In this document: positions 34,815-52,134 of the stretch, piece by piece
Position numbering within the stretch: the first letter of the stretch is position 1
How the letters are laid out: the number at the start of each line of letters is the position of its first letter
Source: Rhizophagus irregularis
Lineage: Eukaryota > Glomeromycota > Glomeromycetes > Glomerales > Glomeraceae
Reading direction: 5' to 3'
Assembly: GCF_026210795.1 (NCBI RefSeq)
Contig: NC_089456.1
Location: 808,501-872,500, forward strand
DNA: 64,000 bases
The notes under the pieces: generated by a model
Seen by the model: the letters and a program-made list of their open reading frames with translations, nothing else
What the model was told of the DNA's origin: nothing
The model's database searches: none
Program-made: the position numbers and the translations under genes

Positions 34815-35465
34815 AGGATAAATGAATCCCAATACTTTATAGCCAATAACTTCAAACTATTCTTGTTTTTTTTCTTATAATTTTTCATTCATATTCTTCT
34901 ATTTGAAATACCTAATATGTATTCTTTTCTCTACGTGTATTGATATGTTTACTATAAATGTTGCATTATATTAGTTATGTCTGCTTTGAAAATTGTATTA
35001 ATTATTGTATCTGTACTTGATTTATTTAGTCAAAATGGAAATAAAAGTAAGTCTCATAAATTTAATTATTATGATGTATTAGGCGACCACCTGAAATGCA
35101 ACTTAGTGTAATTTTAGCCACGTTCAGCAGCATTAAGAAATTAACTATATTATGGTTGTACGTACAAACTGGACACCAGCGTAACTACCAAAAATTATTG
35201 TCACGTGATCAATTTTACCGATCATAACTAGGTTTTTTTTAAATGAAACTTTATACAATAATTATTCAGCTTTTAAAATCATTGTTTATATAGGAATGCT
35301 TGCCTTCTCTTCAAGTTAATTATAGTTAAAAGGATTTGATTTTAAAACTGCATAGTACTTAATTGTTTTGGTAAATTTTTATCATCTATTTTTGGAAATA
35401 ATCTGCAAATTTTTGATTACATGCCAGTAGTTATACTAGGAAAATCATTAATATTAATGCTATTA
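34815..35465. other. Intergenic flank left of the transposon stack
   Basis: 3' UTR of the kinase gene, then about 450 bp of non-coding sequence. It marks the change from gene-dense to repeat-rich DNA. No feature is recognised. Confidence 0.5.
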
Positions 35466-35754
35466 CCGGACACTTCTAAAAAATGACCATTAAATCACAT
35501 TATTTCAACGTCCAGTGATCAGAATTTAACGATTTATGATTCATTGGATTCGTCTAATTGAGACGCATCTAACCGCAGTATTTTCAAGTCTGTAAGTTCA
35601 ATAGATCAGAAGTTATTGCTGAATGTCTAAAAACAGTAAAATGCAAATAACTTTTGATCCATCAATTCCAGAGTAAAGATGTTAGCCGTAACTGTAATAT
35701 TAAGACACAGTGTCATATGTAATAGGTTGCAACCTATTTACATTAAAAAGCAAA

Positions 35755-35850
35755 AGTTGTAATGCTGTAATTAGGTTGTAATGCCATAATTAGGTCGTAA
35801 TACTGTAATTAGGTCTTAATGCCGTAACTAATCCGTAATGCCGTAATTCC
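35755..35850. repeat. Subterminal repeats of element A, left arm
   Basis: About six imperfect copies of a word of about 18 bp, gtaatgctgtaattaggt, varying as gtaatgccataattaggt and gtaatactgtaattaggt. Inverted counterparts lie at 42045-42150. Runs of short subterminal repeats are typical transposase-binding sites, so that role is inferred. Confidence 0.7.
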
Positions 35851-36431
35851 GAAATTAAGTATGTAATTTCGGCCAGAATTATGCACTTAATTTTAGCAGA
35901 AATTAACAAATATCCTAAAAAGGAAGTGATGTTACACAAAATTCCAGTGTCGTTCTAACTAAAATCAATTTTGTGGAACGGCTATCGCCAAAAAAGGAAA
36001 GATATGCATTCCGTTTGGCTGAATTATGATTTTCGGCTGAAATTACATGTTTAAGTGAAATTACGTTAATTTCGGCCGGAATTATATTTCGGATTTCGGA
36101 TTTCGGATTTCGGATTTTAGGAAATATGTGCCCGTGTAATTTCAATTTTAAGGGGTAAATAATATCAAAAAAATAATACCGTATAATCCTGAAATTAAGC
36201 ACCCCCCGAAATTAAACACCCCACATTATATATATATACTAAAAATAAGCACTCCCAAAAAATTGAAGTTTTTTATTATTTAAACATTATAAATGTTATA
36301 ATTACAAATCAATTAACTTTATTAACTTTATTAAATGATACAAAATTATTACTTTATCTATTCATTTATACCAATGTCCGAATCATCACAGCTTATGTCA
36401 TCCTCCAAATTGTCATCACTAACATCGTGTT

Positions 36432-39400
36432 TAGAGCTCTGAATGGGTCAGGTCAGGTCGGGTTTTTGACTTGACCCGATCCAATATTTTTTTTTCGGGT
36501 CAGACTAAATGTAACCCAATGTAAATTTATGATTTATCCGACCTGATCCGTGGGTCAAATCAACCCGATTAATATATAAAATCAATTTAAATCGCAAATT
36601 GCAAATATCATATTTTTATAATTTATTATATCGTTATATTATTTATTATTATAATGTAATTACTAATTAATATTAAAAAAAGATTAAATTTTAATTATAT
36701 TACCAAATACTAGCGCTAATATTAATTGCTAAACGGCCTAGAATACTTAATCCAATTTTTAAGCAACATACACGCTCGAATTGTTTCAATTCCTAAACTA
36801 GAACGCTTTTTTGTTATCAAATCGGTCCCACCTGAAAAAATTCTTTCAACAGGTACACTGGTTCCTAAAATCGAAAATCATACTATTGTTAATAATATAA
36901 TTAATTAAAAATTAAATAAATAATCTTAATTTACATTTTACCTGGTACGCTAAATAATCTCGCGCATGGCCAAGACGCAGATAAGTAGCTTCGTGCGCCT
37001 AAAAAGAATATTTAGATAGTTAAATTATTTAAATTACGTATATATTATTCAGATAAAACTTTACAAATATACTTGCCTTCCACCATTGTAAAGGATTCAT
37101 CTTAAAACTAACTACTGGTTTTCGAAGGTATTCATCCAATTCATCTTCTTCAGATGAATCATTACCAATTTCAAATAAGCTAAAAAAATTTTCCTGATCA
37201 TTTTCTTGAACTTCTAAGTTGCTATTATTTAATAAAGGATCATTTTGGTAATGTTCATTGTATGTATCCTTGATAACTTTTATTGCAGCATCAATATACT
37301 CTTGCTCCCATTCCTGTTGAAGATAATACTTTAATTTCATTCGTGGATCCAGTACTAAAAAAAAAATTATAATAAGTTAATAAATGCATAAACATATTAA
37401 TTATTAAACAATAAATAAAATAAAATAAAATATTCAATACTTGTAGCAATCGGGTAAACATGTGACTCGTCTGTTTTGGCATAATACGTTTTGAGCTTTT
37501 CATACCCTTTTGTTATAGCAGTTCTTATTTCGGAAATTGTACAATATTCTTTGTTTTTATTGTCGTGAAGCTTTTCTAAATGATCCAATAAAATATTGTA
37601 AACAGGAATTGATGAAGAAAGGGTAATATATTGTGCCTTTGACATTTCTACAGTAGCTTTATGAAAGATCTAAAATTATAAAATTATACTTAGAAATAAT
37701 TTATTAATTAATTTAAAATTACATTGAAATCTAATAAACACTTTACCTCAAATACACGACATAATTCTTTCATCTGATTCCACTCTTCTGTAGAAATAGA
37801 AAATTCTTCCAATTCACATTCAATCATTGTTGTATCATGGAGAGGCTATATAAAATTATTAACATATTTAGTTAATCATTTTTATAAATTATAATTTAAA
37901 ATTTCAAGATTATACTTGCTTTTTGAAGTTCAAGAGCACGTTTTAACATCATGTATGTCGAGTTCCATCTTGTTTTAACATCCAAAACGAGATTTAGATT
38001 TTTAACATCTTCATAAAGATCACATTGGGAAGAAAACCTTGCACGACGTTGTGGAGAAACGCGTATTTTTACGATAAGTCTTCTCAGCTAAATATTTATT
38101 AGAAGTTAGAAATTTATAATTAATTATTCTGATTTTATTTTATATTATTATTATATTTACCTTAGGTATCATTTCATATGTATGAGTAGTACGGCTGTTG
38201 CAAAATTCTTCCAAGATCATGTCTTCATCCTGTGCTTCTTCAGCTTTAATTTGCTTTAATATTTCCTGTACTGTAAGATTCATGATATGTGCTATACATC
38301 TTATATGATTTCATTTATGGTGAAAATTGATTCGATTTTCAGTACATGTATGTTCAAATGACTTTAAAAAAGTATTGTTGTTTGCTGCATTATCAGCAGT
38401 GATACCAAGAATCTAATTATAAATAATTTAAAAGTTTTTATTTTACTTAATACATAAAATTTCAAACCAACTTATTAGTTACCTTCGTTAATATTTTTTT
38501 TTCTTGAAGACATGCTGCGAATGCCTTTGCCAAGTTTGCACCTGAATGAGGTCCTGAAAGATCAATGAAATCTACAAGAACATTCCTAAGCATTCCAATC
38601 AACATCAATAAAGTGTCCAGTTATACCGTTAATCCAATAATGTTAGGTGATGTCCATGCATCTATTGCAAAACTTATCTTTCCTGGAGTATTCTTTAATT
38701 AAAGATAAATTAGTAGTTTAATCAAATTAATTGTAATATCAATATCAATATATCACAATTGATATTTACTAACCTGTAGTAAATCTTGCATATTTGATTG
38801 ATGGGTTTTATATAACTTTAAAATATCCGTTTTCACTGTATCTGCTGAAGGAATGAACGCCATTGGATTGCAAGAATGTATTACATGATGAAATTCAGGA
38901 GATTCTACAACTGTGAACGGCTGATCATCAGCGGCAATCCATTCAGCAAGATTTTTACGAAAGATTTCGTTAGAAAATTTCTGTAAATGTATATAAATTA
39001 ATTATTAATTATTACTTTAAAATAAAATAAATTAATATAAATTATACTTCCTATTTGTTCATTTGACTGTATAAATTTTTTCATAAATTCAGCTTGCTTC
39101 GCAATAGAAGGATTGATTTTTTCTGGATGTACTTTATTAAGATGACAGTTTAAATTACCAGTTGATCCACCTTTACTCATATCATATTTACCACCTCTAT
39201 TAAGTATTGTAACAATTATCTAATTTGTTCAATTACTAGTAAATATATATTGACTATTGTGTTAATTTTTACCCACAATATCGACATTTTGCCCATAAAC
39301 CACCATTATTATCTCTAAATTTATCAAAGTGATTCCATACGAAGCTTCCTTTTCTATCATTTTCGTCTAAAGTACTTAAACCTGAATTTGAATTATCCGG

Positions 39401-39848
39401 TAGTCCGCCTTCTACTTGATTTTCTAATCCATCTTCTCGATTCAACTTCTTCAAGATTTTCTTCGTAGGAGCAAATTCAGTTGTTTCTTCTTCTATATCT
39501 GCATTAATTTCACGATAACGACGCTTAGACATTTTGTAAAAGAATATTACATTTTGTAAAAGAATATTTTTAAGCGACGTGTGAAAAAAAAAAATTAGAT
39601 TGATATATATTAATAATCAAGTAAATCAACTTACTTATTTGGTTAGTTAATTTTTATTTATAGTATACAATAATCAAACGATCAGCAATTAATTGAATTT
39701 ATTATTATATACTCTAACTCGGGTTATCCGGATCGGGTTAAAGGCTTGACCCGACCTGATATCAGATCAATATTTCACCTACCCGATCTGAATTTTTCGG
39801 GTTAACCCATCGGGTGACCCATTTTACCCGATCCGATTCGGAGCTCTA
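36432..39848 (-). mobile_element. Element C: hAT transposon with perfect 8-bp target duplication
   Basis: The 3417-bp element has short inverted ends: left tagagctctgaatgggtc, and right, on the other strand, tagagctccgaatcgg. Both ends carry arrays of gggtca/gacccga words. The direct duplication atcgtgtt is exact at 36424-36431 and 39849-39856, as expected for hAT. It lies in the acidic C-terminal tail of the element B transposase. Confidence 0.93.
36722..39532 (-). pseudogene. hAT transposase of element C (BED finger plus RNase-H-like and dimerisation domain)
   Basis: Minus strand, several exons with plausible introns. Exon 1 (39532 downward) has a BED-type zinc finger (FVWNHFDKF to WAKCRYCG, continued by GGSTGNLNCHLNKVHPEK). 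Then come QPFTVVESPEF, ISFAIDAWTS, ILGITADNAANNNTFL, IRCIAHIMNL, KTRWNSTYMMLKRAL and, at the end, the dimerisation motif VPVERIFSGGTDLITKKRSS with a stop at 36722-36724. Stops inside conserved segments (about 38310 and 38620) indicate inactivity. Only light decay suggests a fairly young copy. Confidence 0.88.
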
Positions 39849-40312
39849 ATCGTGTTCCAAATTATCATTAATACCATCCTCCAGATCATCATCACTAATA
39901 TCAATAATTTCATTATCAAAATTCTCTACTTCGTCCAAAGCGTTTGAGATACCACAAGTTTTAAAAGAATCAATGATGATCTCATCAGAAATTCCATCCC
40001 AAGAACATTTCACCCATGCGTACACATCACTGAATTTGGCACGTCAAAGGTTACCTTTATTTGTTTGTCCAGCACCACCAGCAGCCATCCACAAGTGCCA
40101 TTCCTTACGTAAGTTTGCTTTAAATGGTTTATTTATCGCAACATCAAGCGGCTGACATAAACTTGTTAGGCCACCCAGAATAATGCCTAAATCAAATCCA
40201 TAATCACGGAACTTCTCTTTTACTGATTTCTCCAAGTATCCTCGAAAAGAATCATAAACCATTAACTTTGGAGCTCTAGCTCCAGTTCTCTTGTTAATTT
40301 CGTCACCTAGAT

Positions 40313-40606
40313 AGGACCCCGGATATCTCCAAAACAGGTCATAAGTCACACTTTCGGCAGATTGGCCCATTTTTGGAATCAAAAATCGTTTTTTGTAAAT
40401 ATCTCGGCATCCAGTGGTCCAATTTTGATGAACTTTTTTTTTAAATTGTAGAGCTAAATGAGGGCTACAAAATAAAAAAAAGTTCATTAAAATTGAATTA
40501 CTGGATGCTGAGATATTTACAAAAAACGATTTTTTGAGTTTCAGCAAAAAGGGGTGTTTTTGGCCAAAAGTCCATTATGACCTTTATATTAGATATCCGG
40601 AGTCCT
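40313..40606. mobile_element. Element D: palindromic MITE with 8-bp duplication inside the element B transposase
   Basis: 294 bp, largely one inverted repeat: left aggaccccggatatct, right aggactccggatatct on the other strand. Both arms carry an aaatatctcggcatccagt-type segment. The target duplication acctagat is exact (40305-40312 and 40607-40614). Deleting the element and one copy restores an open frame across the transposase (DYL then GDEIN). The 8-bp duplication points to a hAT-type parent. Confidence 0.9.
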
Positions 40607-42044
40607 ACCTAGATAATCAATATACCGGTTCATCAATTCGCTATCCATCCAACCTTTATCTTGAAACCATACTACTACTCCAGGAGGTATTTTTTCACCT
40701 TTTGATAATTGCTTACCCTTAAAGATACAAATTAGAGGAAGCTTGGTTCCATCTATAAATTGGAATCATGAATTTTTGTAAAATTTAAAAGTTTCTTATC
40801 ATAAAATTGAAAAAAAAGATACTACCCGCAGCACATGTCAAAACTACTGTAAATCAGTTTTTGTCATTGCCAGTGCTGCAGATCTGAACAGTTTTTTCTC
40901 CTTTTTGATCAATAGTAAAATTATCCGCCATATCGAACCACACTGGAGTTTCGTCCATATTGAAAATATTGCATAAGTCAAAAGATTTTCTGGTTCTCAA
41001 GTTATTAATAAATTAATGAAATTTAGCCAAAGTTTCTTCTGTTTGACTTGGTAGCTTCTGAGAAATCTTTGTGTGTCATCTCCAGGATAGCTTATATCTT
41101 TTCATGAAGGAGAATATCCACTGACATGAAGTTTTAAATTCTTTTGCTGAACCACCATATAAAGTTATCATTTCACGCTCCTTCAGGATATTTTGCATTT
41201 TAATTCGTAGAATTGTATAAGTAACAGCCAATCCGTTTTCGTTCAATAAGCCAAGTATACAGCTTTTCTTCAGCCTCAGGATAAAAGGCTTTTTGGCTCC
41301 ACACTTCGTTTACTGTCTTGGTTAAGTTCAGAATCCCAGCCTTTGCTTGCCGTAACCCAATGTCCTACTATACTGGCGTTAAGATCAAAGTGTCTTGCCG
41401 CTTTATTTCGTCCGTATAGCTTAGCGTAAGTGATAACCTGTTTCTTTTAATAAACAGAATATGAGAAACGCTTTTATTTATTGCGCAAAGCCTTCAGCAT
41501 TTTTTTGTGAGAGTTTTAAACAGGTTACGAAACATATTTCGCATAAGTCCCATATTTATAAAAATCATTCAGTTATACAAATTATCGATCGTAGTACCAT
41601 CGTAGTATGAATTAGCAGTCTAAATCTCAATTTTGCGATGCAATTTTCAAAAATTTTTAAAGAGAAAGTAATATTTATAAAATCACCTAAAATTAAGCAC
41701 CCCTATAGTAAAAAAAGGGTGTTTAATTTCAGGATTATACGGTAATAATGATTTTTTTTTTGTATATGTAAATTATGTATAAAATCATCTAATTATTATT
41801 AAAGATATTATGCTAATTTAATATAAATTTTTTGAAAAAAACTTAATATTTCCCACCTTCCATCTACCCCTAGGGATTTTAGTTCATTATATAATTTTTT
41901 TCTTTACACGAATGCGTATACAAAATACAAAAAAAATGTGACGCGTCTTATATACCCCTTAAAAATTAAAATTACATGACATATAAACTATTGCAATTTA
42001 CTTTTATAATTCATTACTTTTATTTTAAATTTTTATGCCATTAA

Positions 42045-42150
42045 AAATTATGACATTACAGCCTAATTATAGCATTACAACCTAATTACAGCATTACGAC
42101 CCAATTACAGCATTACGGCCTAATTACAGTATTACAAAAAGTGTTGTAAC
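42045..42150. repeat. Subterminal repeats of element A, right arm
   Basis: Inverted counterpart of the left-arm run: about five copies of a word like cctaattacagcattacg. The run is cut at its inner edge by element E at 42166, and the remainder continues after 45657. Confidence 0.7.
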
Positions 42151-42436
42151 TGTAATGCTATATACCAGTGATGTGCTTGGAAGGCTTCCAATGACTTTTT
42201 GTTGGAATTGGAAGGCCTGTTGGAAGATTTGGAAGTATTGGAAGATTTCAATTTTCCAATAGGTCATGTGCATTGGAAGCTTCCAATCAAAATTTTGTAC
42301 TATTGGAATTGGCTATTGGAAGATCAATACCGCTTCCAATGCTTCTAATACTATTTCGGTAATAGATAATCTTGTACAATAATAAAAAAATTTAATCAAC
42401 GCGTCATTTAATCATCTTTTTCTCACACTTTCTAAA

Positions 42437-45381
42437 ATGAGTACTAAAAGAAAATATAAACCAAAAAATCATCGTTTAACACAATATATAAAAGTGCTTG
42501 GCAAACAAAATAATTGGAATAATTATGCTGTTTGTCTTGCATGTTCTGAAAATTTAGAAGAGAACGAACTGTCAAAGCTTACATTTACAAATAAAAAACT
42601 GCAAGTAAAAAATCATTTAAAAAATTGTGCATTTTTTCGGGAAAAAATTGGTAGTCAGAAAGAAGTAGATGCTATTATTAATCTAACAGACAATGAAAGT
42701 GAGGAAATTGCAAAGAAAAAACGTTTAATAGCAGATTCAGATTCTGGTAAGATTGGAAGAGAAAAGGTGTTAAGATACTTGGAATCTATGCAAAGTAATC
42801 TTGATACTGTATTTTTTAAAACAATAGAAGGAGAAATTTCTTCAGCTCAGTCCTTTGTCTCAACATCAACAACGTTATCTAAACGCCATCTTCATCCAGT
42901 TAAAACTGGTGATAATGTAATGGGAAATATTCTTGTTCGGACGCCTACAAAAAAAGAGCAACCTGTTTTTGAACGTCTTTTATTAAGAGTAACAGTATCA
43001 AATGGATTTCCACTTCAATGGATCAAAAACACTGGTAAAAAAATGGTCTATCCTACACATATCCTACACATATCTTACATATATCGGGTACTCAAAATGT
43101 AGAAAATCATCTACATCAAATAATACACGTATAAATGCAACGTATGGATACATATATATAGTATATATGAGTGTATACAATGTATATGTATTCTCTATAT
43201 ATTAATGCGATATATGTATGATATATATATTAGTACCCGATATGTGTATGATATGTGTATTATTTGTGTATGATTTTCTACATTTTGAGTACCCAATATG
43301 TGTAAGATATGTGTAGGATAAATCATTTTTTTACCAGTGAAATCAAGCAACATTAGATTTATTTGAGTTTTTAAATCCACACCTAATTTTATCAGGACGA
43401 AAAGTACTATCAAATCGTATATTGAATAATGAAACGGAAAGTATAGATAAATTACAAAATGAAAAATTAAGTAATGATCAGATTGGTGTAACATTAGCGT
43501 TTGATAGATGGAAGAATGTATTAAATCAGCATATATTTGGATCATTATTTATTACATCTTCGGGTAAAATTTTAATATGGAATTCATCAGATATTAGCAG
43601 TGAAAGAGAACGTATGATTGAAATAATTCCTAAAATTGAGGATTTAATTAAAGATGCAGGAGTTGACTTAGGTGCAAAAGTAATTGCTATAATTTCAGAT
43701 AGTGCAGCAGCTTATGCTGGAGCTCGTTAAGAATTAAGTAAATTTGATTTATAAAGCATTTTATATTATTACTACTGAAAAATAACTCATATTTTTTTTT
43801 TATTCATCTTTTAGACGACGACTTCGGTTAGAATATCCTCATATTATTTTCTTACCATGTTTCACACATCAATGTCAGTTAGCGATCTGTGATATCTTTA
43901 AAGAATCACTTACATTAAAAAGTGCATCAGCAAAAGCAATCACAGTAGCAGCATATTTTAAAAATGGAAATAATAGCTATTTTATCGGTAAATTATGTGA
44001 TATACAAAAAGAATTATATAATAAATATTATTCAATTATGGTTCCATGCGAAACTAGGTGGAACAGCCATTTCTATTGTTTTAAAAGTTTAATTCGATCT
44101 AAACAGGCATTAAGGGTAATATAATTTTCTTAAATTTAATATTATTTGATTCATTTCATTTAGTTAATTTATTATTCTTATTAATATTCTTTAGAATTTG
44201 GCAATTCGGCATGAGCGTTCACAATCTACACCAGCAGAAGCAAGTACTTCAACATCAAATAATACCAATAAAATTTATTTGAATAAAGACATTTGTAAAA
44301 TTCTTCTTGATAATGATTGGTGGAATACAATAGAATCTTTACAAGAAGTTTTATTACCTTATTGTGGCGTTTTAAATAAGCTTCAAAGTGACAAAGCACG
44401 TCTTTTTGAATTACTTCATGCATTAGGATATTTTATTCAGTTTTGGAATCAGTTTCCAAATATTGAATTAGGCGAAAAAATGATAGAATGATTAGAAAAA
44501 CGGTGGAATCAATGGGAGCAGCCATTACTTTTACTTTCATTTATGCTCCATCCAAAGTATCGGCTTACATATTTCAATCCTAGTATTGAAAATTTGTCAT
44601 TTACTACATTGGGACGCTATTTAACATATTATTATAAAGCGTGGTTCCAGAAAAGACCAACCCGTTTATTGTTAGATTTTGAGGATTATCGCTAAAAAAT
44701 TGAACCATTTGATGATGAAACTTTTGGACAATTTGGTGGTGATGTATTCAAGTTCTGGAAGTATATTAAAGGTGATTATAAAGAATTAGCCAGTATTGCT
44801 CTAAGAATTTTCGGAATCTGTGTAAATGCTGCTTCAGTAGAACGCATGTGGTCTTCCATGGGATTTTTGCATACGAATCGTCGTAACCGATTGAATGTAA
44901 GTTCTATTAATAAATTTTAATAATAGTTATTTAAAATTTGCTAATTTAATTAATTTTTTAGAATGACAAAGTTTTATCAATGAGTAAACTTCGTGCATCT
45001 ATTAATTTCTCACTTAGGAAAAAAGAATTGCAAAAAAATGAAGTGGAGTTTTTTGATTTAAATGCTAAACCAGTTGATGATTCTGCAGAAAATTTACAAC
45101 AAAATCCTATAGATGATGAAGAAATTACTGGAGATGAAAATATTATAACTTCTAAGCGTTGGGAAAATGAACTTGCTGAATGGGAATCAATGTTAATAGA
45201 AGAAGAGGTATCCCGATTGGAAGAAGAAGAAGCCTTAAGAGATAATCCAGGAAGTTTGAGAGGTGACCTTTTGACAGAATATACACATCCGGCAATTGAT
45301 ACTAGGGCAAAATGGGATCTTAAAACTTTATTTAGTTCTGTTATTGATATTCCTAAATACTTATCAAATGAATCAATTTAA
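42437..45381 (+). pseudogene. hAT transposase of element E, interrupted by MITE G and stops
   Basis: Plus strand. A BED-like N terminus (RLTQYIKVLGKQNNWNNYAV, CLACSENLEE..LKNCAF) is followed by FPLQWIKN, where insertion G breaks the frame. It resumes at QATLDLFEFLNPHLILSGRK, then GVTLAFDRWKNVLNQHIFG, VIAIISDSAAAYAG, FLPCFTHQCQLAICDIF, VPCETRWNSHFYCFKSL and the end domain SIALRIFGICVNAASVERMW plus HTNRRNRLN. In-frame stops at about 44489 and 44694 and a damaged splice donor near 43730 make it a pseudogene. The acidic tail ends at 45381. Confidence 0.87.
43030..43339. mobile_element. Element G: CACTA-like MITE in the element E transposase
   Basis: 310 bp with inverted ends cactggtaaaaaaatg and its complement, and arms built of tacacatatc words. 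The flanks share aaa (43027-43029; 43340-43342). Removing the element plus one aaa joins WIK with NQATLDLF in frame, so a 3-bp duplication fits. CACT ends with 3-bp duplications are the hallmark of CACTA/EnSpm elements. It has no coding capacity. Confidence 0.78.
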
Positions 45382-45707
45382 ATAATAATGTTTGTTTTTT
45401 CCCATTATTTGTTACAGCAGTTTATATATAACATAATTTGCTAAATAAAATTTAGTTGCTCAAACTTTTAAATGTATATTTTTAAAGTTTTATTAATAAA
45501 TGTCAATAAATATTTCTATTGAATAAAAAATATGTCACGTGAATTAAGTGCTTCCAATCTTCCAATAGAAATCTATTGGCGTTGGAAGGTTTGGAATTGG
45601 AAGAATTGGAAGATTCCAATAGCTTCCAATCTTCCAATACACATCACTGCTGTATGCTGTAATATTATGGCATCAGCCAATCAATTATGGCTAACATCTT
45701 TATTCTA

Positions 45708-46763
45708 GAGACATGAAAATAATTGATACAATGTACCTTAACAAGATAAATCTAATGAATCATATTTCATCATTTTAAGTTTAATAGGGAAGAAAACATT
45801 GTGAAATTTGTATTTGCTAAAATTTTAAAGATAAAAAATAAATTACTTCATAAAGTTAAATCACATTATTTCAATAACCAGTGAACAGAATTAAATTATT
45901 TATGATTCAATGAATTCATATTATCAAGATGCATCTAATTGCAGTGTTTTTATATCTCTAAATTTGATGGATCATATGTTATTTTCAACAGTAAAATGCA
46001 AATAATTTAAGGTTACAGGCGAAACCCCATAGTAAATGTGAAACTTGACAAAACTATATTAAAATATTAATAAAAATTTGGCGAAACTTGACTATAAAAA
46101 TCATATAAAATGACAAAACTATAATAAACTCTTATAAAAAAATTGACGAAACTGAGATTTAGACGTTTTTCCAAATTCAAAAACCAGTTTAGCCCGCAAC
46201 CTTAAAATAATTCATTATTCACTTTTAAAAATTTGACATATATGTTATGCATCAGATGTCGATTTGCGTCAGATAATAACTGCATATTTTAAAGAAGGAA
46301 ATTTCCACCAATATGAATCTGAACATGTTGAAATTTTAGCATTATATATTTAAAAATATGATGAACTAATTTACTTAGGCAATAAAGGCACATTAAGACT
46401 GAAAAATTTTATGTTTAATTATAGCTAAAATTTTGAATAACATTATCTACGATATTAGCTGATATATAATTCAGCATTAAACATTAATGGTTCAGGATAT
46501 ACGCAAATAATTATGGTACACAGATTTACTTATAAAATGAAAGACAATTTAATTAATAAATAAAAATGTTTACTTATAAGAAACTATTCAAAATTAGCAT
46601 CTAACGCATGTCAGTTGTCATCTGATGCAAATCGACATCTGACGTACAACATATACAAATTTCAAACCATTTTCGATTCTTCTTTATTGAACTTAGAAAG
46701 ATGAAATATGATTCATTAGATTTGTCTTGTTAAGATACATGGTATCTATTATTTTCATGTCTC
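45708..46763. mobile_element. Element F: foldback element in the right arm of A, TA target
   Basis: 1056 bp. Ends gagacatgaaaataat on both strands, followed by about 80 bp of inverted match (cttaacaagataaatctaat against cttaacaagacaaatctaat). TA flanks both sides (45706-45707; 46764-46765). Removing it restores the arm of A (ttattctagaattgatag, matching the left arm). At about 45870-46000 it carries a diverged copy of the module also found in A. A further small element (46010-46202) seems to be inserted in it. Confidence 0.8.
46010..46202. mobile_element. Element O: small TA-flanked MITE inside element F
   Basis: 193 bp. Ends aggttacaggc and aggttgcgggc on opposite strands (9 of 11 match), with TA on both sides. 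It carries aaacttgac/ttgacgaaac words. The short ends make this less certain than its neighbours. Confidence 0.5.
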
Positions 46764-46978
46764 TAGAATTGATAGATCAAAAGTTATTTACATTTTACTA
46801 TTTTTAGACATTTAGCAATAACTTCTGATCTATTGAACTTACAGACTTGAAAATACTGCGGTTAGATGCGTCTTAATTAGACGAATCCAATGAATTATAA
46901 ATCGTTAAATTCTGATCACTGGACGTCAAAATAATGTAATTTAATGGTCATTTTTTAGAGGTGTCTGGATACTTTTAG

Positions 46979-47601
46979 CAGGTAGATGTATATACACCTC
47001 TCACTATAAGAATACCTGTAACTGTTGTTTAGTAATACAGTTGCAACAATTGCTTAGTAATATTTATTAATAAAAATCATATATAAAAATTTAAATAAAA
47101 AATCATAAATTATATCTTTTCTTTCATATATTTATTTATATATCAAACAATAATATTTTATTAGATGCCTTGCATTTCTTATTAGTTCTTAATTGTATAT
47201 TTTTAATATATTTTTTTTTTAAACATTATAAAGAAAGCAAGTTCTTTTTATTAATTTCTTAATTTATCTTTAGATTTTTTAATAAAGTAAGAAGAAATAT
47301 GATGATACCAAATTACCAATCTAACTTTTTGCCTTTAATTTCTTCCTATAAAATTGTTAAAATCTTCTTATTTTTCAAAGTAAATTATAAGTTTATGCTT
47401 ACAATCCTCTAATAATCTTAAAGGCTTTATAACTATTTATGACTATTAAAGTCAGATGGAATTAATTGTTATAAAAAAGTAAAGCCATGCATCTAGCTTA
47501 CGATCAGAAAATTGGTGTCCTTGTGGATATAATAACTTTAATTCTGAGATCAGTTCTATTATATTACATTCATTTTGATTCCATTTGGCAAATAAATTAT
47601 A
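46979..47601. other. AT-rich non-coding stretch
   Basis: About 620 bp to the right of element A. I see no frame or repeat that I can name. Confidence 0.4.
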
Positions 47602-48355
47602 TCATTCAATGCTAGAAGTCTGACGCTGAAGATGATATTCATATAATTTTTTCATTAGATTAAAATTATCCCATTCGTAAGAAGCATATTGTGAAATGTG
47701 TATCTTGACTAATTTTTGTAATATAACCTCATCTTCCAACCCAAATAGTTGTATTCCTGAAAATTTTTGAATAAAACCTGAATTTTTCCAAACATTATTT
47801 GGAATAGCTTCCACAAATGTTTTTTGAAGTTTAAAATCTTGATAAATACATATGTGACATTTATTATCTTCAATTTTGGATACAAATATAGCTGGACGTT
47901 TTTTATACAAATAAATAAGTGATGATTTGTAACTATTGCCTGCTTTATTCCAATCCGAACATGTAGATGAACCAATCCATAAATAAATATCCCATAATCA
48001 CCAAGTTGACATGTAAATGAATAAAAATCAATATTAGATGAAAGAACATCTATTATGTTTTATTATTCCATTCCATAACAACATGATCAGAATAACGTAT
48101 TTTATTTTGAAAAATATTTTGATATGTTTTGGAAATTGCCTTAGTTGCACTTGTTTCTATAACAAAAAAATCACAACTTTGATAGTAATATTCAGGTAAC
48201 ATGGAATCAGAACTAGGATTTTGTATTGTTATATAAAAATCACGTTCATTTAAACGTGTACTAATTTTTTGATCTACTCTAATGGGAAATTTGGGTAGTA
48301 GTATGTAAGTCAGAAATACTTGGAACTTCTCACCAATAACGTGAAAAAGGTCCAT
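47602..48355 (-). pseudogene. Fragmented unknown gene
   Basis: Two minus-strand frames, 48355-48053 (100 codons) and 47910-47602 (102 codons), are joined by short frame pieces (DVLSSNIDFYSFTCQLGDYG; then STCSDWNKAGNSYKSSLIY), so one protein with at least two frameshifts is likely. Protein-like segments include YYYQSCDFFVIETSATKAIS, YSDHVVMEW and KKRPAIFVSKIEDNKCHI. I do not recognise the family. It could be a host gene family that expanded, or part of an element. No catalytic motif is seen. Confidence 0.5.
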
Positions 48356-50109
48356 AGTAAAGGTTTTCTACAAGTGAGCCAGTTTCTAATAAAATAACAT
48401 GTACTTGACTACTTGAGACATGGTTAGTCTCAGATTTTACGTATTTTTACAAGTTTATTATATGTGAAGTATTATCTTTGATTTATTAAATTTCACTGTA
48501 TATTACTAATATTTTTCTTTGATTTTTTTTTTTGAAAAATGGCATTCTAAAACAAATGAATGTAAAGTAAACAGGAAAGAAGAAAATTTTATTCTTTTTT
48601 GTATTTTTTTTTTTATTAATAACATTCATTGATTTTTTTTAAAAAATGGCTCTTTAAATTTTTTAAGATGAAATAAATACAAGGTACATTACAGAAAAAA
48701 GAATTTAGTTTAAAGTTTTTTTTCATTAAGACCTGATCCGCCTATGATTAGCAGTGAATTACTATATAAATTCAGGGAAAAGTACTATAAGCAAAAATCA
48801 AAATTGAAAAAATGTTACACAACTAAAAACTACAAGTGATATCATTGTGGCACTAAAAACCATGTGATAAACTTTAAATGCCAAGAATCATATCAGATCT
48901 ATCAGTTTCACCAAAAATATCCAGTTTATCAGGATATTTGATATAGCGAAAAAATTTTGATATATTAAAAATCTATTATACTAAATTTTTTTAAAAAATT
49001 TATACTAATAAAATTAATGTACACTATATTTTAATTTTTTCAATCTAGTTTAAGTCATAAAGGTCACGAAAATGAATATAAAATGTTTTTAAGTAATATA
49101 TAACTTCAGCCAGAATTAAAATTTTTATAATTCTGTTCAAAATTAAGATTTATTGACTTAAATTTTATTGGTTAATTATTATATGATTCAGTTAATCAAA
49201 TTATTTTTATTATAGCTGGTTAGAAAATTGATTTGTTATAGCAAATATCGAGCTTTTACTAGTAAACTCTGATATATCGAAACTATTTTAATATACATGA
49301 TTTGGTTCTAGCAAAAAAGTCCAGTTTAAGCCTAAATTCAGTTTATCAAAAATCTGATTTATCAAATTTCACTATGTATTCTTAGTGAAAAAAAAAATAA
49401 AAAAATAAAATTCCTATTTTTAATTTACTATCTTATATTTAAAGATGTTAATCGTAATTCAAAAAAGTGCTGTAACATAAAATTTTTATATACTGTAATT
49501 AATTAAGGCTATAAAAATCTTATACTGTAGCTGTAGAACACTTTATTAAGAAAAGTTGAGTTCTAATTGTGAACTTCATAAAATTAGTAAATTAAGGTAA
49601 TTTTGGACATACCAACTCATTAGAACAGTACTTTTAATATAATCAATAGAGCTTTATATTTAAAAAAAATAAATTTTTTTATTTTATAAATAATTATTAA
49701 TCTATACAGTCAACTTCCTCTATAGTCACTCCTGTTATAGTCACATTCTACTATATAGTCACACCAGTTAAATGTTCAAAACACTTTATTATTAAAATCT
49801 ATTCTATAAATATAATCTATTCTATAAAAAATTTTTTATTAATATATTATAAACAAAAATTTTTTTTTCTGAAAGGTTAAATAAAGTAATATATAATTAA
49901 AATAAAATTTCAAAAAAAATTTTTTGGCCAAACTTTTTCTTTTGCTATAAGTCCGCCCATATATAAAATAATTATCAGAAAAAAGAAATTTATAAAAAGT
50001 TAATATTTTAATATTTTAAAATTTTTAATTATGATTTATAATAATACTTATAATATTTACAAATAATATATAATTAATATTAAATATTAATTTTTTAGAT
50101 TTTTAAGTA
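48356..50109. other. AT-rich, decayed repeats without a clear gene
   Basis: About 48940-49370 has a possible small element: ends tagcgaaaaaattttgat and, on the other strand, tagtgaaatttgataaat. No target duplication is assured. At 49707 a solitary pogo-type end is present (listed separately). The rest is low-complexity AT sequence. Confidence 0.4.
49707..49770 (+). repeat. Solitary terminus of a pogo element related to H
   Basis: Begins cagtcaacttcctctatagt after a TA and continues with tatagtcac words, close to the termini of element H (cagtcgtcccctcatagtca on its right). No matching opposite end was found before retroposon M at 50123, so it looks truncated. Confidence 0.6.
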
Positions 50110-50736
50110 TTTATAATTATACTTTTTTTTTTTTTTTTTTTTTTATGTTTTAGGACTGTCATCACATGCGCTCACCAGATCTATATGGAGGAAGCACTAC
50201 AACTAAAGTTGCACTCCTACCGTTGAGCGACAGATAACCAAACAACCTACTCTAATTATTTAGAAGTAACCAGATGTTCATCCCCCTACCCCCTATATAC
50301 CACACTAGGAAGACGACCCAAGTTTATACCCACACAAGGATAGATCGTAATGTAGCAAGGTTTCTGACACAGTTATACTACCCACTAGCGCCTGTCAGAA
50401 GTAAACAACCACCTATGTACAGCAGATATAACAGAGCAGACATCTAGAAGTCCTTCCATGATGGTTAGCTTAGAGGTACTGCAATACCAAGACTACTAAT
50501 ATGGCCTTACTCAAAGCCCACTACAGGCTGTAATTACCATACCAGCCCACCATAGTTGTAAATCCCCCAGTAGTAATAGCAGTGACTACCAGAACAGTAA
50601 GCTGCTAAGGGTACTGGAATCACCCCTTTATTATAAGTAACCAACCCAGTTACTCAGGGATCACCACTAGTACGTCAAATTCACTGAGGAATTGAACCTC
50701 ACCTTAGAACTTTATATACCTGTGAGCCTACGAACA

Positions 50737-51536
50737 TATACATGAAGTTGAAATTAAAGCCCAAAAGTAGAAATATTTCGACTTGGAAAGGTCAAAAGTC
50801 GAAATTAAAGTCGAAATGGTCAAAATTACATCATAGTCATGTGATTTTTATAATTATAATTTAATATAAAATTTTAAACGTGAATAACTCCGTCAATATT
50901 GATGCTACAGATATGAAATATATATCATTGGAATCCTCTCGATTAGCTGAATCCAACCGCGTAAAGATCATAAAAATCGAATCACTGGATGCGGAGTTCG
51001 TTAACTTTGAATTTTAAAATTATTGTTTACTATAAAAATTATAAGACTATTTAATACCAAATTTTAAACGTGAATAACTCCGTCAATATTAATACTACAA
51101 ATATAAAATACATATCATCGGAATCCTCTCGATGAGCTGAATTCAACCGCGTAAAGATCATAAAAATCGAATCACTGGATGCGGAGTTCGTTAACTTTGA
51201 ATTTTAAAATTATTGTTTACTATAAAAATTATAAGACTATTTAATACCAAATTTTAAACGTGAATAAATCCGTCAATATTGATGCTACAAATATGAAATA
51301 CATATCATTGGAATCCTCTCGATGAGCTGAATCCAACCGTGTAAAGATCATAAAAATCGAATCACTGGATGCGGAGTTCGTTAACTTTGAATTTTAATAT
51401 TATTGTTTACTATAAAATCATATGACTATGACATAATTTCGACCATTTTGACTTTTGGAGGGGCTCAAGTCGAAATCATTTCGACCATTTCGACCATTTC
51501 GGAGTTCAAAATTAACCAATTTCAGTTTCATGTATA
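50737..51536. mobile_element. Element J: MITE with 8-bp duplication, carrying a 190-bp tandem repeat
   Basis: 800 bp with inverted ends tatacatgaa and subterminal tcgaaatggtcgaaat-type words. The target duplication tacgaaca is exact (50729-50736; 51537-51544), within retroposon M. The interior is three tandem copies of a 190-bp unit. The 8-bp duplication suggests a hAT-like mover. It has no coding capacity. Confidence 0.87.
50871..51425. repeat. Three tandem 190-bp units inside element J
   Basis: Units start at 50871, 51061 and 51251, each opening attttaaacgtgaataa. They are near-identical, and the third is truncated by about 15 bp. Each contains cactggatgcggagttcg. On the other strand each unit aligns with the internal module of elements A and F. 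Confidence 0.88.
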
Positions 51537-52134
51537 TACGAACATCTCCAATCAGCCTAAATCTATTAGAAGGTAAACTACTGCTAAGACATTACATTTG
51601 AGACTTTACCATCTATGAGGACCATTTAGCGTAGTAAACCCCCACAGTAAAGTTTACCACACCCTTAGTGGTATCGTAGAGTGACCACCAAGACAAAAGC
51701 TCACCCAGATGGTATGCAAGCAGTGACCATCCAGACATGACAATAGGCTTCCCAATGGCCTCATAGGAAACGCTAGAAGGACACCATGATACCCTTTGTT
51801 GAAATATACCGCCAACCAGTACATACTAATTCACCATGATGCAGTCCAGCCTACACTAATCCCTGTACCTTTACACTATTGGTAGTAGTGTCTGCAGTAA
51901 AATTCTTTTAATTTCCATGATCGGTGGAATTGAACCTACGACTTCACCATACTTAGGCTTCACAAGGGAACTCACAGACTAACCAATGAGCCAAGGATGA
52001 CATTTGTGTTTATAATTATACTACTTATTCTAATTCAAAATTAAACTTAACTTTAAGTAAATAATAATAATAACAATTCAATTATGTTAAAATATTTAAA
52101 TGAAAATATATACAAAAAATTTATGAATTTTAAG

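What the first reader, a model, noticed from the sequence alone, without database searches (positions are those of the whole stretch)
35508..51425. A shared module of about 120 bp in element families with different target duplications
Elements A (35508-35640 and inverted near 46800-46940), F (about 45870-46000) and J (three units, other strand) share the same order of words: ccagtgat, then ttggattc (spacing 32 bases in both A and J), then gtattt about 34 bases later, then tcaat and a final tatt. Element D carries the first part (25 of 31 positions match J). A, F, J and D have different termini, and where known their duplications differ (TA or 8 bp), so the module is not explained by common ancestry of whole elements. 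It may be a mobile cassette, a protein-binding site, a structured RNA or a conserved hairpin arm.
Basis: partly seen in the sequence, partly recalled or inferred. Interest (0 to 1): 0.75.

Follow-up and report, generated by a model that had tools for sequence, protein, structure and literature searches.

The report
Palindromic block shared by unrelated transposons
A roughly 120-base near-palindromic stretch of non-coding DNA sits, often in several copies, inside several families of small jumping genes whose ends and insertion footprints suggest that they are moved by different enzymes, so it looks like a reusable part that these elements have passed around.

Summary
A and J share a 107-column ungapped match that 0 of 1000 dinucleotide shuffles reach. 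Genome-wide, two module words give 1361 and 1296 hits, reversed controls 0.

One correction: the window's A and F copies are one element, A(+) B(-) F(+) B(+) A(-), cut by a 10,029-bp insertion and two small ones.

The module is a ~120-bp imperfect palindrome. Between-family identity is 0.44-0.71 within 60 bp of the dyad and 0.27-0.32 beyond 90 bp. It lies between unlike termini with different target duplications: A (TA), W (4 bp, mostly TTAA), and X, D, J (8 bp, three different termini).

Hairpin or RNA function is not supported: arms swapped between modules pair as well as real ones. Yet conservation is mirror-symmetric, and changes private to one copy are as frequent at conserved as at variable non-CpG columns.

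Best reading: a reusable non-coding cassette of non-autonomous DNA transposons, probably bound symmetrically by a dimeric protein (inferred; the within-family selection test is not significant). A 4.27-kb TTAA element with W-like ends lacks it.

The parts
35466..35673 (+). Left arm of an A element, with an outer A module at 35506-35639
   Evidence: 98% to genomic copy L002:459-666; 94% complementary to 46761-46968; module 103.9 bits
35674..45702 (.). 10,029-bp insertion that splits the A element; inverted ends taaagatgttagcc, 8-bp duplication with one mismatch; D lies inside it
   Evidence: left piece ends at L002:666, right piece starts at L002:659, an 8-bp overlap
40313..40606 (.). Element D: 294-bp palindromic element, ends aggaccccggatatctcc, 8-bp duplication acctagat
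   Evidence: 875 first-look candidates, of which 40 were scored (a palindrome may count twice)
40404..40534 (+). Module-like centre of D, matching on both strands; the most diverged member
   Evidence: 15.8 and 12.3 bits; 25 of 30 with J
45703..45787 (-). B module of the same A element, inverted; its outer end is cut by the insertion
   Evidence: 40.0 bits, was not in the profile; 90% complementary to 46677-46769
45872..46005 (+). F module, an internal part of the A element
46008..46648 (.). Two further small insertions inside the A element (about 46008-46204 and 46243-46648)
   Evidence: right piece aligns to L002:659-963, 956-993 and 987-1326
46683..46807 (+). B module, direct copy
   Evidence: 67.4 bits
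46794..46926 (-). Outer A module of the right arm; the element ends near 46990
   Evidence: 100.8 bits
50737..51536 (-). Element J: ends TATACATGAAAC.. and ..TTCATGTATA, 8-bp duplication tgttcgta, three 190-bp units
50861..50995 (-). J module in unit 1
   Evidence: 102.5 bits
51051..51185 (-). J module in unit 2
   Evidence: 97.7 bits
51241..51375 (-). J module in unit 3
   Evidence: 99.7 bits

Best explanation
The module is a ~120-bp, dyad-symmetric, non-coding cassette that several non-autonomous DNA transposon families in this genome carry in their interior, singly or in arrays of up to seven copies. SHOWN: it is one homologous sequence family with clear edges; it lies between unlike termini whose target duplications differ (TA, 4 bp, 8 bp); a larger element with ends like one of these families lacks it; its conservation is mirror-symmetric while its arms do not covary. 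INFERRED: module copies reached different terminal-repeat families by capture (nesting, or template switching between repeats) and were then amplified by each family's own transposase. INFERRED, less sure: the symmetric conserved words (CCAGTGAT, TTGGATTCGTCTC and their mirror copies) are half-sites for a dimeric DNA-binding protein that is not the transposase, so that elements carrying the module did better and it was taken up repeatedly.
For: Homology and scale: 706+655 hits, control 0; 666+630, control 0; 170+132, control 0; 31 of 40 sampled loci match the window-only profile at E<=1e-6 by my count of its rows; the loci had been picked by a 21-26-base word of the module. Edges. Different termini and duplications. 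Arrays: J one to seven listed 190-bp units, two to six in the ten fetched copies; X six modules; A five. Mirror-symmetric conservation: r=0.54, the highest of 80 dyad positions (all 80: mean 0.02, sd 0.16); 0.56 without CpG columns; 0.54 with 24 hand-picked rows, roughly one per module type (others mean 0.00, sd 0.15). Not plain mutability: changes seen in a single copy, per site x copy, are 0.0077 at conserved and 0.0081 at variable A/T columns, 0.0139 and 0.0158 at non-CpG G/C columns. A TTAA element with W-like ends and no module: L100.
Against: No binding protein is known and none was sought. The selection test that leaves the focal family out and counts each variant once is only suggestive: private to shared variants 62:19 at conserved and 69:36 at variable non-CpG columns, odds ratio 1.70, p=0.14; A/T columns alone 2.8, p=0.10; G/C columns alone 0.89, p=0.83. 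Counting all within-family changes, A/T columns differ (0.0135 against 0.0343) but non-CpG G/C columns do not (0.086 against 0.088), and this count is partly circular. Over all columns, within-family divergence is lower at conserved columns (195 of 6630 against 440 of 6601; rank correlation -0.50) and itself weakly mirror-symmetric (0.29, p=0.04); with it regressed out the mirror correlation is 0.44. Mirror symmetry is strong for pairs whose consensus is complementary (0.61, 30 pairs) and weak for the rest (0.29, 20 pairs). B and F copies inside A have drifted far, so not every copy is constrained. L100 matches the W end pattern over 25 bases only, with 2 mismatches at either end, so it may not be W's true partner, and one of three such stretches was read. 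D joins the family only through J and a weak profile score. J and the Y arrays have similar termini (TATA..TG...CCGAAATT) and grouped modules, so that pair is explained by shared ancestry.
Confidence: 0.55

Rival explanations
1. Passenger satellite-like filler. An ancestral palindrome multiplied into arrays; arrays were swept into new non-autonomous elements whenever ends closed around nearby repeats. The module does nothing.
For: Module copies of one locus differ nearly as much as copies of different loci (mean identity 0.71 over 19 pairs within a locus, 0.61 between loci); array members of related elements fall in different clades, with modest support; the module-free L100; the within-family constraint test is not significant.
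Against: Does not predict mirror-symmetric conservation, which private changes in single copies do not explain, nor the few indels within the core.
Confidence: 0.3
2. One old element family with re-invented ends.
For: J and Y have similar termini and grouped modules; A and F turned out to be one element.
Against: Identity between families falls to background outside the module, and duplication lengths of 2, 4 and 8 bp point to different transposases.
Confidence: 0.05
3. Structured RNA or DNA hairpin under selection for pairing.
For: The consensus is self-complementary at 30 of 50 mirror pairs; the dyad register pairs far better than slid registers (62.5% against 35-42%).
Against: Right arms swapped between modules pair as well as the real ones: 0.511 against 0.512 with D left out, 305 of 500 swaps at least as high; with D 0.517 against 0.510, 79 of 500. 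Per-pair shuffles: 37 of 500 reach the cells paired and 36 of 500 the covariation score, 56, 204 and 189 of 500 the other three measures. Some mirror pairs are conserved as mismatches (column pair 11/99 is G/A in 33 of 43 rows with letters). No Rfam family reaches its gathering score in 35400-51600.
Confidence: 0.05
4. Transposase binding site (sub-terminal repeat of a long terminal inverted repeat).
For: In A the outer module lies inside the 208-bp terminal inverted repeat.
Against: The same module sits in the interior of W and in tandem units in J, in families with different duplications; L100 lacks it.
Confidence: 0.05

Closest known systems
Tetris / DAIBAM foldback elements of Drosophila virilis (PMC4079207, abstract and outline seen)
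   Same: Non-autonomous DNA elements of modular structure whose arms hold ~220-bp internal tandem repeats
   Different: Tetris and DAIBAM share terminal sequence and probably one autonomous element; here the ends differ and the interior is shared
Satellite-like arrays carried by non-autonomous Helentrons in Crassostrea gigas (PMC7492417, title and start of abstract in the listing only)
   Same: Short arrays of satellite-like units dispersed by mobile elements
   Different: One element group there; here elements with TA, 4-bp and 8-bp duplications, and a palindromic unit
SINE families with a shared central domain (CORE-SINE, V-SINE recalled; HaSE1/HaSE2 in PMC3272025, start of abstract in the listing)
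   Same: A conserved internal domain shared by element families that differ in other parts
   Different: Retroposons; no palindrome and no arrays that I recall
MITEs of Rhizophagus irregularis as curated in PMC11075540 (passages seen)
   Same: TIR elements of 50 bp to 1 kb without a transposase domain; about two thirds of this fungus's TEs unclassified before curation
   Different: The passages I saw describe no module shared across superfamilies

Membership tests
One homologous module family | Similarity above composition-matched chance in a fixed register | tested here: met
   A-J 0 of 1000 shuffles; J-D 0 of 1000; but A-D 287 and 106 of 1000, F-D 565 of 1000; genome words with zero reversed controls
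One element family with re-made ends | Similarity extends beyond the module; one duplication length | tested here: not met
   Identity falls to background outside the module; duplications of 2, 4 and 8 bp
Structured RNA or hairpin | Compensatory changes across mirror pairs beyond what swapped arms give | tested here: not met
Known RNA family (Rfam) | Match at the gathering score | tested here: not met
   Window 35400-51600 only; 6 matches, all under their gathering scores
Tc1/mariner-like (A element) | TA duplication and terminal inverted repeats | tested here: met
   TA on both sides in 12 of 14 copies with both ends found, of 20 loci; 5 of these read TATA on both sides
Tc1/mariner-like (A element) | Related autonomous copy with a DDE/D transposase | not tested
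   Not searched by protein; two 5-6 kb versions found by end spacing proved to be A copies with nested insertions
hAT-like (X element) | 8-bp duplication, hAT-type ends | tested here: inconclusive
   8-bp duplication exact in 4 of 7, 5 of 7 with one mismatch, of 15 loci; that such ends are hAT-type is recalled; hAT-type domains in L081 and L084 are not shown to belong to X
piggyBac/TTAA-type (W element) | TTAA duplication | tested here: met
   4-bp duplication in 10 of 10, TTAA in 9, ATAA in 1
piggyBac/TTAA-type (W element) | piggyBac transposase in a partner with the same ends | tested here: not met
   6 of 6 ORFs of 90 aa or more in L100 have no Pfam match at E<=0.1; L100 may not be the partner
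Dimeric protein-binding site | Mirror-symmetric conservation without pairing | tested here: met
   constraint within families only suggestive
Dimeric protein-binding site | A protein binds it | not testable with these tools
   needs the bench

The most novel reading that the evidence does not exclude
A cross-superfamily cis-element: a host-encoded or transposon-derived dimeric protein recognises the palindrome and favours any element that carries it (for example by nuclear positioning, replication timing or escape from silencing), so that DNA transposons with different transposases have repeatedly taken it up and multiplied it internally.
Probability: 0.25. Interest if true: 0.85.

Novelty: new variant of a known kind. 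Interest (0 to 1): 0.62.

Why it matters
Non-autonomous DNA transposons are usually classified by their ends and their interiors are treated as filler. Here the interior is the shared, conserved part and the ends are what varies, across elements that different enzymes probably move. If the module is functional, it gives a concrete bait for finding a factor that unrelated transposons exploit. It could also help to classify the large unclassified repeat share reported for Rhizophagus irregularis (PMC11075540, passages), if that is the organism, and it warns that repeat libraries built by sequence similarity can wrongly merge unrelated families through such modules.

Tried and rejected
Rejected: separate A and F families; RNA or hairpin constraint; CpG decay or plain mutability as the whole cause of the conservation pattern; one family with re-made ends; transposase site.

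Led nowhere: exact scans for module words in viral contigs and in bacterial and archaeal genomes gave 0; other fungi could not be searched. Rfam gave only sub-threshold hits. An autonomous A element was sought by end spacing; two 5-6 kb candidates (L102, L103) were A copies with nested insertions. The scan of 31 loci for terminal repeats and duplications was clear for few: J in L029 (8 bp), L069 (TA, cagatggtggcctaaatgatccgg), L063-L065 (ttaa, ggcatgatccgcc), L056 (tgtaca); the other rows I set aside as ambiguous or empty.

Results against my reading: the leave-family-out selection test is not significant; all within-family changes at non-CpG G/C columns do not differ between conserved and variable columns; within-family divergence is itself weakly mirror-symmetric; A-D and F-D similarity is at chance level.

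Rows dropped: the pair analysis used 44 rows: 43 of the 57 forms listed, plus D. The 14 left out by hand are nine further A-family forms, four short or gapped ones and L074. In one search, loci without both ends found are not in the denominators (A 6 of 20, X 8 of 15; J, D and W none). Nine of 40 sampled loci (L045, L063-L065, L067, L070, L071, L073, L079) do not reach E<=1e-6 with the window-only profile.

Papers: PMC11075540 passages; PMC4079207 and PMC3442997 abstract and outline; all others search listings only. Searches made; the parts of their listings that I saw name no such module, which does not show that it is unpublished.
Full report
SETTING. The window lies in G000, 146.7 Mb in 32 contigs. 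Size and contig number fit Rhizophagus irregularis; that name is recalled and comes from no call.

THE OBSERVATION. A and J1 align without gaps over 107 columns with a score of 29 (68 matches by arithmetic); 1000 dinucleotide shuffles reach at most 15. J1 and D match over 30 columns with score 20 (22 for D's other arm); 0 of 1000 shuffles reach either. A against D is at chance (287 and 106 of 1000 shuffles reach it for the two D arms), so is F against D (565), and F against J1 alone is weak (14 of 1000). With a sequence-only profile built from the seven window copies, an unused copy (about 45682-45787, minus) scores 40 bits, D 15.8 and 12.3 on its two strands, and the best hit in the window outside these elements 10.5.

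ONE ELEMENT, NOT TWO. F lies inside the A element in other genomic copies. An alignment of 20 loci, with the inverted B arms, gives a ~0.9-kb element whose module order is A(+) B(-) F(+) B(+) A(-). In the window the left arm 35466-35673 matches genomic copy L002:459-666, and the right piece from 45703 starts at L002:659. The 8-bp overlap is a target duplication (7 of 8) around a 10,029-bp insertion with inverted ends taaagatgttagcc. Two smaller insertions lie at about 46008-46204 and 46243-46648. I therefore read all A and F copies in the window as one A element.

HOW MANY. The word CATCCAGTGATNNGATTTTNATGAT with up to 3 mismatches has 1361 hits in the genome against 0 for the reversed word; D arms can match it with 3 mismatches, so many hits may be D. 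TTGGATTCRTCTCATYGAGAYGCATC with up to 3 has 1296 against 0. A third word with up to 1 mismatch has 302 against 0. Only the first 100 places of each were listed. Forty loci picked from these lists were fetched; 31 of 40 match the window-only profile at E<=1e-6, mostly over about 100 bases or more (my count), although each was chosen by only a 21-26-base word. Iterating on all loci then held gave 211 non-overlapping copies and 57 forms under 85% alike.

WHERE THEY SIT. Families whose ends were checked in several copies: A, ends CACCCACCTGCCAAAAGTATCCGG, TA on both sides in 12 of 14 copies with both ends; J, ends TATACATGAAACCGAAATTGG, exact 8-bp duplication in 8 of 11 (9 with one mismatch); D, ends AGGACCCCGGATATCTCC, 8 bp in 11 of 11; X, ends TAAAGCTCYGAATGGGTC, ~1.2 kb with six modules, 8 bp in 4 of 7 (5 with one mismatch); W, ends TTCGTGATCCGCC, ~0.5 kb with one module, 4 bp in 10 of 10, TTAA in nine. 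Single loci add L069 (TA), L063-L065 (ttaa, half-module only) and Y (8 bp gtagtggc, ends like J's, read by eye at one locus). One search lists J with one to seven 190-bp units (best 40 candidates only); the ten fetched copies have two to six. Y carries three direct copies about 148 bp apart.

EDGES. With modules aligned on their dyad, mean identity between families is 0.44-0.71 within 60 bp, 0.33-0.37 at 60-90 bp, and 0.27-0.32 further out, against 0.289 for unregistered flank. The shared part is therefore about 120 bp.

PALINDROME WITHOUT COVARIATION. One dyad stands out: 0.517 of mirror cells are Watson-Crick; the next best register has 0.388, and all but the five best average 0.279 (sd 0.036). 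But giving each module another module's right arm pairs as well: 0.511 observed and 0.512 swapped with D left out (305 of 500 at least as high); 0.517 and 0.510 with D (79 of 500). Per-pair shuffles give a slight, inconclusive excess (37 and 36 of 500 for cells paired and covariation score; 56, 204 and 189 for the other measures). Selection for pairing, or arm-to-arm conversion, should have left more.

MIRROR-SYMMETRIC CONSERVATION. Column conservation correlates across the dyad with r=0.54, the best of 80 dyads (all 80: mean 0.02, sd 0.16); 0.56 without CpG columns; 0.61 for pairs with complementary consensus and 0.29 for the others; 0.54 with 24 hand-picked rows. Plain mutability does not explain it: changes seen in only one copy are as frequent at conserved as at variable columns (A/T 0.0077 and 0.0081; non-CpG G/C 0.0139 and 0.0158; CpG columns are too few to judge, 1 change at conserved ones). 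All within-family changes together are rarer at conserved columns (0.029 against 0.067); by base class this holds at A/T columns (0.0135 against 0.0343) and not at non-CpG G/C columns (0.086 against 0.088), and the comparison is partly circular. Within-family divergence is weakly mirror-symmetric too (0.29); with it regressed out the mirror correlation is 0.44. The leave-family-out version, counting each variant once, gives 62:19 against 69:36, odds ratio 1.70, p=0.14; A/T alone p=0.10, G/C alone p=0.83: suggestive at best, not shown.

TREE. X modules form one clade (97/91). Y modules are split, one pair joining J (91/90). The two modules of L057 and of L061 fall pairwise into two clades (94/78 and 98/76), which suggests that this array is older than the split of those elements. 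A's outer and F modules pair (100/98), B stands apart. D sits on a long branch and its place is unsure.

TRANSPOSASE SITE? The W-type ends also bound three ~4.27-kb stretches (C19, C22, C24). The one fetched, L100, has several ORFs without a Pfam match and no module (best profile hit E 2.4). It shares only about 25 end bases with W, so this is evidence, not proof, that the module is not needed for that transposase.

CONCLUSION. A dyad-symmetric non-coding cassette shared by DNA transposons of at least three duplication classes. Capture and amplification are inferred from anatomy; protein binding from the mirror symmetry. Nothing here identifies a protein. Other fungi could not be searched; exact words were absent from the viral and prokaryotic collections.

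Noticed in passing
window 35674-45702: A 10,029-bp insertion with inverted ends taaagatgttagcc and an 8-bp duplication (7 of 8), holding element D and two sets of 19-bp tandem repeats (35756-35850 and 42046-42140, inverted to each other, 82%); one 221-aa ORF at 42437-43102.
   Followed up: partly
L100 (G000:C24:2058860-2063330): A ~4.27-kb element with TTAA-flanked ends like W; six ORFs without any Pfam match at E<=0.1; end pairs of equal spacing also on C19 and C22. An element nested in L103 has ORFs that look alike by eye.
   Followed up: partly
L081:1671-2195 and L084:2097-2840: hAT-type domains (DUF659; hAT C-terminal dimerisation) within about 0.5-2.5 kb of X elements; whether they belong to an autonomous X relative is open.
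   Followed up: no
L083:6744-7727 and L084:7041-8000: Endonuclease/reverse-transcriptase-type ORFs (Exo_endo_phos) about 2.6-2.8 kb beyond a Y and an X module array.
   Followed up: partly
window 50737-51536 and J copies genome-wide: The number of 190-bp units in J varies from copy to copy (one to seven listed), a possible length marker between strains.
   Followed up: no
L063, L064, L065: A ttaa-flanked element (ends ggcatgatccgcctaagaa) in which only about 26-30 bases at the outer end of the module are matched, in inverted pairs, as in D: perhaps a half-module form.
   Followed up: no
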